DNA of 64,000 nucleotides, from the NCBI RefSeq assembly GCF_030845195.1, contig NZ_CP132543.1:2745501-2809500 (forward strand). The letters are read 5' to 3'. Position numbers and translations under genes: made by a program. This DNA comes from Sanyastnella coralliicola. Its GTDB lineage: Bacteria > Bacteroidota > Bacteroidia > Flavobacteriales_D > Sanyastnellaceae. The notes below the pieces were generated by a model, which had not been told where the DNA came from, ran no database searches, and saw only the letters and a program-made list of their open reading frames with translations. Below, piece by piece: positions 33,706 through 40,041 of the stretch (its first letter is position 1; every line of letters starts with the position of its first letter).

Positions 33706-33732
33706 AAGGCCTCCAAATGGAGGCCTTTTTTT
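33706..33732 (+). terminator. Terminator after the TlpA-like gene
   Basis: Perfect stem AAGGCCTCC-AAAT-GGAGGCCTT followed by a T-run. Confidence 0.92.
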
Positions 33733-33752
33733 ATGCCCCATTGGCACGTCTT

Positions 33753-33795
33753 CTGTCAGTTTGAGAGATTTGAAACTTTTTTCCTGTCAGTTTGA
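33753..33795 (+). promoter_or_regulatory. Two CTGTCAGTTTGA operator-like repeats upstream of grpE
   Basis: CTGTCAGTTTGA occurs at 33753-33764 and again at 33784-33795, exactly 31 bp apart (about three helical turns). The core GTCA-GTT-TGAC of the second copy is a dyad. A related inverted piece, CAAACTGAC, is at 33831-33839. Position and phasing suit binding of a dimeric activator upstream of the sigma-54-type promoter. Confidence 0.6.
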
Positions 33796-33809
33796 CGTAT
33801 TCCCCTTGG

Positions 33810-33825
33810 TGGCAGTATTTTTGCC
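33810..33825 (+). promoter_or_regulatory. Sigma-54-type promoter of grpE-dnaJ
   Basis: TGGCAGTATTTTTGCC matches TGGCAyrnnnnTTGCw at the invariant GG (33811-33812) and GC (33823-33824) with the required 10-base spacing. Predicted start near 33836, leaving about 19 nt before the grpE ATG. Confidence 0.65.
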
Positions 33826-33854
33826 CCTTCCAAACTGACTTGAAAAATCAAGGA

Positions 33855-34409
33855 ATGAACACGAAAGATCAGAACGAAAAGGCGCAAGCTGCGGAAGCAG
33901 TGGAAACACAAGCGGCTGAAACAAACGAAGAACAAGCAACAGAGGAGACTCCTGAGTTGAGTCGCGAAGAACAGCTTGAGGCGATGGTTGCAGAGTTGAA
34001 AGACAAGTACACTCGTTTGTTCGCGGAGTTTGACAACTTCCGCAAGCGTACAGCGAAGGAGCGTATTGAGATGCTCAAAACTGCCAGCGGCGATGTGATC
34101 AAGGAAATGCTTCCTGTACTCGACGATTTCGATCGCGCAGCTAAAGCGAACGAAGCTTCTGAAGACATCAATACGGTGAAAGAAGGTTTCAACTTGATCC
34201 ACCACAAACTCAAGCATTCACTTGAAGTGAAAGGACTCAAGCCAATGGACAGCATTGGACAACCGTTCGACACAGAATACCACGAAGCGATTACCAACAT
34301 CCCTGCTCCATCAGAAGACATGAAAGGAAAGGTTGTAGACGTAGTGGAAAAAGGATACTTCATCAACGACGCTGTACTTCGTTACGCTAAAGTTGTTGTT
34401 GGCCAGTAA
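33855..34409 (+). CDS. grpE: Nucleotide exchange factor GrpE
   Basis: Releases ADP from DnaK in the Hsp70 cycle. 184 residues from ATG 33855 (MNTKDQNEK); the longer frame would begin upstream of the promoter. An acidic Glu/Ala-rich N-terminus and coiled coil precede the core DNFRKRTAKERIEMLKTASG, MLPVLDDFDRAAKANE and the C-terminal beta domain (GQPFDTEYHEAITNIPAPSE, VVEKGYFINDAVLRYAKVVV). Nine bases before dnaJ; dnaK is not nearby. Confidence 0.96.
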   Translation: MNTKDQNEKAQAAEAVETQAAETNEEQATEETPELSREEQLEAMVAELKDKYTRLFAEFDNFRKRTAKERIEMLKTASGDVIKEMLPVLDDFDRAAKANEASEDINTVKEGFNLIHHKLKHSLEVKGLKPMDSIGQPFDTEYHEAITNIPAPSEDMKGKVVDVVEKGYFINDAVLRYAKVVVGQ

Positions 34410-38857: not shown

Positions 38858-38874
38858 TAAGGTAAATGAACGAC

Positions 38875-40041
38875 ATGGCCCAGATCCTTATTATTGACGA
38901 CGAAGCAAGCATCCGCAGTTCACTGCGTGAGATCCTCGAATACGAAGACTACAAAGTTGAAGAAGCTGAGAATGGCAAAGAGGGTATTCAAAAGATTCAA
39001 GATGGCAAGTTCGACTTGATCTTCTGTGATATCAAAATGCCAGGAATGGACGGCATCGAAACGCTTGAACGTATTCGTTTGATGGAGGTGGAAACTCCTG
39101 TTGTCATGATTTCAGGACATGGTACTGTAGAAACAGCCGTAGAAGCATTGAAGAAAGGGGCATGGGATTTCATTGAAAAGCCACTCGACCTCAATCGAAT
39201 CCTTGTGACTCTTCGTAATGCCTCTGACACGAGCGCACTTGTTGAGGAGACAAAGACCCTCAAGCGCAAGATCAATAAGCAGCTGAGCAGTAACATCATT
39301 GGCGAGTCCGAAGCTATCATGGAGATCAAGAAGATGATCGAAACTGTAGCTCCAAGTGAAGCACGCGTGTTGATAACTGGTGGAAATGGATCAGGTAAAG
39401 AATTGGTTGCTCGTTCATTGCACAGCAACAGCGAACGCGCGAAGAAGCCTTTCATCGAAGTCAACTGTGCGGCCATTCCTTCTGAGTTGATTGAAAGTGA
39501 GTTGTTCGGTCACGAAAAAGGTGCCTTTACTTCAGCCATTAAGCAGCGCAAAGGAAAGTTCGAACAAGCAGACGGCGGAACGCTGTTCTTAGATGAGATT
39601 GGTGATATGAGCGCTTCGGCGCAAGCCAAAGTGCTACGTGCATTGCAAGAACACAAAATCACACGTGTTGGAGGCGACAAAGACATTAAGGTGAATGTGC
39701 GTGTATTCGCTGCAACGAATAAAGATCTGCGCAAAGAAATCGCTGAAGGGAACTTCCGTGAAGATTTGTACCACCGTTTGAACGTGATTCCGATTCACGT
39801 TCCTTCATTGAAGGATCGCAAAGACGACATTCCGTTGTTGGCAGACTTCTTTATCGAGAACATTTGCAACGATTACGGTATGCCGGCTAAAGAGATCACT
39901 GCTTCTGCCATCAAAGAACTTCAGAAGGGTGAATGGACAGGAAACATCCGAGAGCTGCGGAACGTGATTGAGCGTCTAATTATTTTATGTCCAGACAAGA
40001 TTGATGGTGCAGACGTGAAGAAATACGCCCAAATCAGCTAG
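38875..40041 (+). CDS. NtrC-type sigma-54 activator response regulator without DNA-binding domain
   Basis: Response regulator driving sigma-54 RNA polymerase through ATP hydrolysis. 388 residues from ATG 38875 (MAQILIIDDE); ATG 38866 adds three. Receiver domain with phosphoacceptor Asp52 in FCDIKMPG. AAA+ domain with Walker A GGNGSGKE, Walker B TLFLDEIGD and arginine-finger region FREDLYHRLNVIPI. The sigma-contact loop reads GAFTSA instead of GAFTGA. The protein stops soon after the AAA+ lid (LRNVIERLIILCP), so the usual C-terminal Fis-type helix-turn-helix is missing. No cognate kinase is adjacent. Confidence 0.9.
   Translation: MAQILIIDDEASIRSSLREILEYEDYKVEEAENGKEGIQKIQDGKFDLIFCDIKMPGMDGIETLERIRLMEVETPVVMISGHGTVETAVEALKKGAWDFIEKPLDLNRILVTLRNASDTSALVEETKTLKRKINKQLSSNIIGESEAIMEIKKMIETVAPSEARVLITGGNGSGKELVARSLHSNSERAKKPFIEVNCAAIPSELIESELFGHEKGAFTSAIKQRKGKFEQADGGTLFLDEIGDMSASAQAKVLRALQEHKITRVGGDKDIKVNVRVFAATNKDLRKEIAEGNFREDLYHRLNVIPIHVPSLKDRKDDIPLLADFFIENICNDYGMPAKEITASAIKELQKGEWTGNIRELRNVIERLIILCPDKIDGADVKKYAQIS

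What the first reader, a model, noticed from the sequence alone, without database searches (positions are those of the whole stretch)
33706..33854. Sigma-54-type promoter with phased upstream repeats drives grpE-dnaJ
Directly seen: TGGCA-N-TTGC spacing with GG and GC ten bases apart at 33811-33824, and two CTGTCAGTTTGA copies 31 bp apart just upstream, one containing the dyad GTCA-GTT-TGAC. Sigma-54 promoters need a AAA+ activator bound upstream, and 31 bp matches three helical turns. Heat-shock chaperones in model bacteria use sigma-32 or HrcA/CIRCE; sigma-54 control would be a different stress circuit. A further TTGGCACG half-site at 33741-33748 has no -12 element.
Basis: partly seen in the sequence, partly recalled or inferred. 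Interest (0 to 1): 0.78.

Follow-up and report, generated by a model that had tools for sequence, protein, structure and literature searches.

The report
Sigma-54 chaperone switch with phased enhancer
The switch in front of two heat-protection genes looks like a sigma-54 promoter with a paired control site set at whole turns of the DNA helix, a design found in many related bacteria and in most of the tiny-genome insect-symbiont relatives checked.

Summary
Alone, the -24/-12 pair is no more frequent than chance (35 genome hits, 53 reversed). With the dyad it is far beyond chance: 69 of 79 related grpE genes carry TGnCA-N3-TGnCn, 12 or 13 bp, then TGG[CT]A-N6-TTG. A gene-blind scan of 392 genomes found 97 sites against 2 reversed; of 30 loci read, 29 precede grpE, dnaK or htpG. 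Sigma-54 promoters at these chaperones are already published for Flavobacterium psychrophilum (PMC9723704), so the basic claim is not new. I add: (1) dyads sit at helically phased distances (12, 23, 33, 43, 54, 64 bp); (2) the likely activator is not the regulator beside grpE (GAFTSA, no DNA-binding domain) but a Fis-type enhancer-binding protein encoded near groES; (3) in a family of reduced symbionts, all 55 sampled genomes with RpoN have exactly one enhancer-binding protein (its identity checked in 35 at length), and 11 of 12 without RpoN have none. In the two RpoN-less genomes read, dyad and promoter are missing too. I infer that RpoN survives there for chaperone transcription. No transcript, binding or mutant data were available.

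The parts
33706..33727 (+). terminator-like hairpin after the tlpA-like gene; separates it from grpE
   Evidence: 9-bp stem followed by a T run
33754..33766 (+). upstream dyad copy 1, TGTCAGTTTGAGA, right half degenerate; 43 bp before the -24 element
   Evidence: in phase with dyads at 42-44 bp before groES of symbionts
33785..33797 (+). proximal dyad TGTCA-GTT-TGACG, 12 bp before the -24 element; proposed enhancer-binding-protein site
   Evidence: 69 of 79 related grpE genes carry such a dyad at 12 or 13 bp
33810..33814 (+). sigma-54 -24 element TGGCA
33821..33824 (+). sigma-54 -12 element TTGC
33836..33836 (+). predicted transcription start, 12 bases after the C of the -12 element
   Evidence: inferred from usual sigma-54 geometry (recalled); not measured
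33855..34409 (+). grpE
   Evidence: PF01025
34419..35546 (+). dnaJ
   Evidence: PF00226, PF01556, PF00684
38866..40041 (+). response regulator with sigma-54-type AAA+ domain, GAFTSA loop and no DNA-binding domain; linked to grpE-dnaJ in some relatives but unlikely to be the activator

Best explanation
The element is a sigma-54 (RpoN) promoter for grpE-dnaJ. RNA polymerase with RpoN binds TGGCA-N6-TTGC. A dedicated enhancer-binding protein with a sigma-54-type AAA+ domain and a Fis-type helix-turn-helix (here called EBP132; its gene lies outside the window at about G000:C1:2,826,931-2,828,172, minus strand, about 3 kb upstream of groES) binds the dyad TGnCA-N3-TGnCA on the same helical face, 12-13 bp upstream of -24 at grpE and one to five helical turns further away at other sites, and opens the promoter when chaperones are needed. 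The same pair (RpoN and EBP132) serves groES and, in relatives, dnaK and htpG, so in this group sigma-54 does the job that sigma-32 or HrcA does elsewhere. Shown: motif, conservation, spacing, target genes, and joint retention or loss of RpoN and EBP132 in the symbionts sampled. Inferred: binding, activation and the stress signal.
For: 62 of 78 grpE upstreams hold TGG[CT]A-N6-TTG (200 shuffles: mean 0.56, maximum 4) and 59 of 78 also the dyad at 12 or 13 bp (shuffles: 0). With gene starts re-examined the composite is in 69 of 79. Gene-blind scan: 97 sites against 2 reversed in 392 genomes; 29 of the 30 loci read (of 97) are grpE, dnaK or htpG. RpoN is encoded. Dyad spacings before symbiont groES are 23, 32-34, 42-44 and 46 bp; with other distant sites the 11 distinct values give R = 0.82 near 10.25 bp, reached by 1 of 20000 random sets. 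All 55 sampled RpoN-bearing genomes of family f71 have exactly one PF00158 match at E 1e-30 or better; 11 of 12 without RpoN have none. The 30 loci fetched are EBP132 orthologues after miaB, and 5 further genomes agree. In all 24 genomes where groES was reached, EBP132 sequence lies on the same stretch. The HTH end is identical in the four proteins aligned. In RpoN-less G634 the regions before grpE, groES and dnaK hold neither dyad nor promoter; in RpoN-less G688 groES has neither and follows miaB directly. A 5'-end map assigns the -24/-12 motif to grpE-dnaJ and other chaperones in F. psychrophilum (PMC9723704).
Against: No binding, transcript or mutant data here. TATTTTTG overlaps and could be a sigma-A -7 box. 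The fourth -12 base is A in 27 and T in 9 of 62 sites, not C. Own dnaK has TGGCATACGGATTGA but no strict dyad, and own groES has CTG instead of TTG at -12. A dyad centred near -45 is closer than usual for enhancer-binding proteins (recalled). Of 24 symbiont groES regions 5 failed the joint test: G684 and G656 have a dyad and a TGGCA site 44 bp apart with an altered -12, G660 is weak, G664 and G668 have nothing recognisable, although G668 keeps RpoN and EBP132. The grpE site was matched in only 10 of 14 main-genus genomes. Symbiont spacings are related by descent, and I chose which extra sites to include after seeing them. The groES regions of 10 of the 12 RpoN-less genomes were not seen. The composite was found in only 63 of 105 genomes of the window's class under the strict pattern.
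Confidence: 0.72

Rival explanations
1. It is an ordinary Bacteroidota sigma-A promoter (TTTG at 33791-33794, 21 bp, TAnnTTTG at 33816-33823), and the sigma-54 likeness comes from shared TTTGC letters.
For: The match to the published TAnnTTTG box (PMC9723704) is exact; the generic scan also reports a weak -35/-10 pair here (9 of 12 letters).
Against: Among the 62 sites found by their TGG[CT]A-N6-TTG letters, TAnnTTTG is kept in only 29. In F. psychrophilum the grpE start was assigned to the -24/-12 motif SM4, separate from the sigma-A motifs (PMC9723704).
Confidence: 0.1
2. The promoter is sigma-54, but the activator is the response regulator downstream of grpE-dnaJ (38866-40041), acting from solution or through a partner.
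For: An orthologue follows dnaJ on the same strand in 28 of 67 loci with at least 5 kb after dnaJ.
Against: All 28 orthologues, like the window's own protein, have GAFTSA instead of GAFTGA and end after the AAA+ lid with no DNA-binding domain. The single activator kept in the 35 symbiont genomes read at length is EBP132.
Confidence: 0.1
3. The dyad is bound by a different protein (a repressor or architectural factor) that needs helical phasing with the sigma-54 polymerase.
For: The dyad is very close to -24 at grpE; no binding data exist.
Against: Dyad, RpoN and EBP132 are missing together in the two RpoN-less genomes read (G634, G688), and the EBP132 HTH end is constant. I did not search for other regulators in the symbionts.
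Confidence: 0.15

Closest known systems
SM4 (sigma-54) promoters of chaperone genes in Flavobacterium psychrophilum (PMC9723704; passages and section 15 read)
   Same: Same phylum, -24/-12 elements, mapped 5' ends, grpE-dnaJ, groESL, dnaK, htpG, lon, clpB; three PF00158 proteins noted as possible activators; one sigma-54 regulator is listed with lptE four locus tags from groES
   Different: In the parts read, no upstream dyad, no spacing rule and no activator named for the chaperones
Predicted sigma-54 chaperone regulon in Bacteroidota and Planctomycetota (PMC12316311; abstract, passages and one part of the reference list read)
   Same: GrpE, GroES, GroEL, DnaJ, DnaK and HSP90 among genes with predicted sigma-54 promoters; GrpE and GroES stated to be sigma-54 dependent in named species
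   Different: Promoter motif only; no enhancer site or activator assigned in the passages read. For that statement it cites a Blattabacterium genome paper (Sabree et al. 2009) that is not held, so that paper may already discuss RpoN and chaperones in symbionts
PspF-like enhancer-binding proteins (receiver-less AAA+ plus Fis HTH; architecture recalled)
   Same: EBP132 has the same domain order and no receiver domain in Pfam
   Different: It scores 280.6 bits against the NCBIfam PspF cut-off of 443.55, has an extra stretch between AAA+ lid and HTH, and lies after miaB and near groES

Membership tests
sigma-54 (RpoN) promoter | GG and GC ten bases apart within TGGCA-N6-TTGC | tested here: met
   33810-33824; conserved in relatives with TTG[ACT]
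sigma-54 (RpoN) promoter | RpoN encoded in the same genome | tested here: met
   PF00309 at E 7.6e-15 and PF04963 at 3.6e-59
sigma-54 (RpoN) promoter | transcript start about 12 bases after the -12 element, lost without rpoN | not testable with these tools
   only by analogy with the 5'-end map of F. psychrophilum (PMC9723704)
sigma-54 (RpoN) promoter | enhancer site for an AAA+ activator | tested here: inconclusive
   conserved phased dyad; binding protein inferred, not shown
bacterial enhancer-binding protein (EBP132, outside the window) | PF00158 domain with GAFTGA | tested here: met
   GAFTGA in the own protein, GSFTGA in 28 and GAFTGA in 2 of 30 symbiont orthologues
bacterial enhancer-binding protein (EBP132, outside the window) | DNA-binding HTH | tested here: met
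   PF02954 at 2.9e-13
bacterial enhancer-binding protein (window 38866-40041) | GAFTGA motif | tested here: not met
   GAFTSA in the window protein and 28 of 28 orthologues
bacterial enhancer-binding protein (window 38866-40041) | C-terminal DNA-binding domain | tested here: not met
   no HTH match; 28 orthologues of 387-392 aa end after the AAA+ lid
Bacteroidota sigma-A promoter | TAnnTTTG -7 box kept in relatives | tested here: not met
   present at 33816-33823 but kept in only 29 of 62 relatives' sites
HrcA/CIRCE or sigma-32 heat-shock control | CIRCE dyad or sigma-32 promoter at grpE, with the matching regulator gene | not tested
   no dedicated search made

The most novel reading that the evidence does not exclude
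Across the class of Bacteroidota to which this genome belongs, the core heat-shock circuit is RpoN plus one dedicated enhancer-binding protein whose enhancer can sit directly against the polymerase (centred near -45) or at whole helical turns further out, so activation may not need long DNA looping. This circuit, and not nitrogen control, is why RpoN persists in insect symbionts of 0.3-0.6 Mb; where RpoN is lost, the activator and the sites go with it.
Probability: 0.55. Interest if true: 0.8.

Novelty: new variant of a known kind. Interest (0 to 1): 0.6.

Why it matters
It turns a promoter prediction into a testable circuit: a named activator candidate, a site with a spacing rule, and a list of targets. 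It offers an answer to why some flavobacterial insect symbionts keep RpoN, which the authors of the Walczuchella genome tied to nitrogen (PMC3971599, passages read). It also predicts an unusually close enhancer geometry for sigma-54, and it warns that the regulator encoded downstream of grpE-dnaJ is probably not the activator.

Tried and rejected
Rejected: the -24/-12 pair as evidence by itself (not enriched); the response regulator at 38866-40041 as activator (GAFTSA, no DNA-binding domain); sigma-A as the main reading (TAnnTTTG not conserved); the TTGGCACG half-site at 33741 (no -12). The recurring symbiont hit TGGCACGGAGTTTGC/TTAGC was set aside as 16S rRNA (from recall, no call). The EBP-like gene of RpoN-less G581 sits on a contig with phage-like replication genes and is not EBP132.

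Not decisive: within the phylum sample RpoN is nearly universal (387 of 392), so presence and absence could be compared only in the symbiont family. In the five RpoN-bearing genomes of about 0.3 Mb the strict pattern did not pick out a groES site, and RpoN-less genomes also had strict hits (9 in G581, 4 in G593, 0 to 2 in the others); of the latter only the loci fetched were checked, and none holds groES, grpE or dnaK. No structure prediction was run.

Rows dropped or partial: L076 (no grpE match) from 80 loci; L078 (57 bp upstream) from the 78-locus count; 14 unlisted RpoN-less genomes were worked out from gaps in the handle numbers, and only the 9 presumed to be symbionts were searched (all 9 proved to be of family f71). 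G652 may belong to that family too and was not searched. In one search I gave 32 of the 67 symbiont genomes. Class and non-class counts, and the total of 97, for one search were tallied by hand from its tables. One search used the longest ATG frame as gene start; 11 of its 16 misses had the -24/-12 element at or past that start (L047: 4 bp before it), found after looking at the misses. One search gave no result for G634 groES (start of stretch too near); one search repeated it with the 160 bp available.

Full report
Setting. The window lies at 2,745,501-2,809,500 of a 4.1-Mb single-contig genome. The nearest relatives by DnaJ are mostly Flavobacteriales-type Bacteroidota (record titles). grpE starts at 33855 and is followed by dnaJ; a terminator-like hairpin at 33706-33727 follows the upstream tlpA-like gene, so grpE probably heads its own transcription unit.

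The observation. The sigma-54-like pair alone means little: TGGCA-N6-TTGC occurs 35 times in the genome and the reversed pattern 53 times. CTGTCAGTTTGA occurs three times in the genome, two of them here; its reversed form occurs twice. The combination is what stands out: allowing two mismatches, the composite TGnCA-N3-TGnC-N13-TGGCA-N6-TTG gives 15 hits against 1 for the reversed pattern, with two exact hits, grpE and a trxA-like thioredoxin gene (named by sequence likeness). Several of the two-mismatch hits lie inside long open frames and are probably not promoters.

Conservation. Spacings below count the dyad as 13 bases, TGnCA-N3-TGnCn. Eighty DnaJ loci were fetched, the best 80 of 571 confirmed relatives; 79 hold grpE. 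Of the 78 with at least 100 bp upstream, 62 carry TGG[CT]A-N6-TTG (200 dinucleotide shuffles: mean 0.56, maximum 4), and 59 carry in addition the dyad at exactly 12 bp (45) or 13 bp (14) before -24; shuffles gave none. Sixteen misses were re-examined: in 11 the -24/-12 element lies at or past my called gene start, three carry TGGTC or TGGTT, one is offset, and one (L043) has nothing. The sigma-A box TAnnTTTG is kept in only 29 of the 62.

Targets. A scan of 392 genomes of the phylum, without gene information, found 97 exact composites in 74 genomes, against 2 for the reversed pattern. By hand count, 63 of 105 genomes of the window's class (own included) have one, and 11 of 287 others. The tool fetched 30 of the 97: 25 precede grpE, 2 dnaK, 2 htpG, and 1 could not be assigned. 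The pattern fixes the 12-bp spacing, so genes with other spacings, such as groES, cannot appear in it.

What was known. A 5'-end map of Flavobacterium psychrophilum describes motif SM4, the -24/-12 elements of sigma-54, at groESL, lon, dnaK, grpE-dnaJ, htpG, clpB and others, and notes that three proteins with a sigma-54 interaction domain may be distinct activators (PMC9723704, section 15 read). A 2025 comparison reports enrichment of chaperones in the predicted sigma-54 regulons of Bacteroidota and Planctomycetota (PMC12316311, passages read). Sigma-54 control of grpE-dnaJ is therefore not new. In the parts I read I saw no upstream dyad, spacing rule or named activator. Ten full-text searches did not list a paper on them, but none searched for the dyad letters, most hits were seen as listings only, and the library lacks most subscription papers.

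Which activator. The genome has four strong PF00158 proteins. The one in the window (38866-40041) is linked to grpE-dnaJ in relatives: in 28 of 67 loci with at least 5 kb after dnaJ, and in 28 of the 37 where an ABC transporter gene follows dnaJ. But it and all 28 orthologues read GAFTSA instead of GAFTGA and stop after the AAA+ lid without a DNA-binding domain. A second one, EBP132, lies outside the window between genes that look like miaB and lptE (names from recall), about 3 kb upstream of groES. It has GAFTGA, no receiver, and a Fis-type HTH. In F. psychrophilum a sigma-54 regulator listed with lptE is four locus tags from groES (PMC9723704, Table 2).

The symbiont test. In the order of genome G103, RpoN was found in 361 of 395 genomes. 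One family there, f71, consists of genomes of 0.2-0.6 Mb, with one of 1.3 Mb; G668 has 309,299 bp, the published size of the insect symbiont Walczuchella (PMC3971599), so I take f71 for the flavobacterial insect-symbiont family. All 55 of its sampled genomes with RpoN have exactly one PF00158 match at E 1e-30 or better; of 12 without RpoN, 11 have none. One more RpoN-less genome, G652, may belong to it and was not searched. The exception, G581, carries a different protein on a contig with helicase and DNA ligase genes of phage type. The 30 enhancer-binding-protein loci fetched are all EBP132 orthologues (52-56% identity) after miaB, and 5 further genomes agree (G405, G629, G664, G668, G684), so 35 of the 55 were read at length. 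In all 24 genomes where groES was reached, EBP132 sequence is on the same stretch. The HTH end LGISERTLYRKIK is unchanged in the four proteins aligned.

Their promoters. Among 14 genomes of the main genus (g198, Blattabacterium-like by size), TGGCATGTTTTTGGC precedes groES in 13. TGGCAAAT[CA]TTTTGC occurs in 10; in the 8 fetched it precedes grpE-dnaJ, with TGTCATTATGACA or TGTCATAATGACA 13 bp (7) or 11 bp (1) upstream. Dyad and -24 element were both found before groES in 19 of 24 genomes, with spacings 23, 32-34, 42-44 and 46 bp. Of the 5 others, G684 and G656 show a dyad and a TGGCA site 44 bp apart with an altered -12, G660 a weak one by eye, and G664 and G668 none. Together with grpE (12-13 bp; extra dyads at 54; L039 at 24), own groES (64) and own grpE copy 1 (43), the spacings follow one helical series; the 11 distinct values above 20 bp give R = 0.82 near 10.25 bp, matched by 1 of 20000 random sets. 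I chose which extra sites to include after seeing them, and the genomes are related, so this figure is indicative.

The negative side. In RpoN-less G634 the regions before groES (160 bp available), dnaK and grpE hold neither dyad nor promoter. In RpoN-less G688 groES has neither and follows miaB with about 95 bp between the two matches, where RpoN-bearing relatives have EBP132. These are two genomes of twelve.

Interpretation. The simplest account is that EBP132 binds the dyad on one helical face and activates RpoN polymerase at chaperone genes, and that this circuit is kept under severe genome reduction. Authors of the Walczuchella genome noted the retained RpoN and suggested a link to nitrogen (PMC3971599, passages read); the present data point to chaperones, at least in the Blattabacterium-like genomes. 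Against it: G668 itself has no recognisable groES site, and a Blattabacterium paper cited for this theme (Sabree et al. 2009) could not be read, so part of this may already be in print. What EBP132 senses is unknown; it has no receiver, and a partly conserved stretch (around YQLLFDMKNDLTDLKKL in the own protein) lies between AAA+ lid and HTH, a possible site for control by chaperones (speculation).

Noticed in passing
window 38866-40041 and 28 orthologues in loci L038-L114: A conserved response-regulator AAA+ lineage with GAFTSA in place of GAFTGA and no DNA-binding domain, linked to grpE-dnaJ-ABC transporter genes; function unknown.
   Followed up: partly
L237 (contig C1 of genome G581): A 29% G+C contig with helicase and ATP-dependent DNA ligase genes of phage type, a 280-aa EBP-like AAA+ protein, and four near-consensus sigma-54 sites: possibly a phage that uses sigma-54, or contamination of the assembly.
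   Followed up: partly
window 33778-33794 and 33831-33847: Inverted repeat of 17 nt, 88% complementary, flanking the grpE promoter; no counterpart stood out in the relatives' upstream sequences read by eye.
   Followed up: no
L115 (own genome, 1093862-1093900): A trxA-like thioredoxin gene carries the exact composite element with 12-bp spacing.
   Followed up: partly
L117 (own genome, 2027514-2027552, minus strand): A dyad TGCCAACTTGGCA with a one-mismatch promoter lies upstream of a gene that looks like the primary sigma factor gene rpoD, after pnp (names by recall).
   Followed up: no
G183, G239, G347 (same phylum, family f30): Three genomes outside the class share a composite site of the type TGACAnnnTGACCGAAA...TGGCACGCC...TTG; downstream gene not read.
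   Followed up: no
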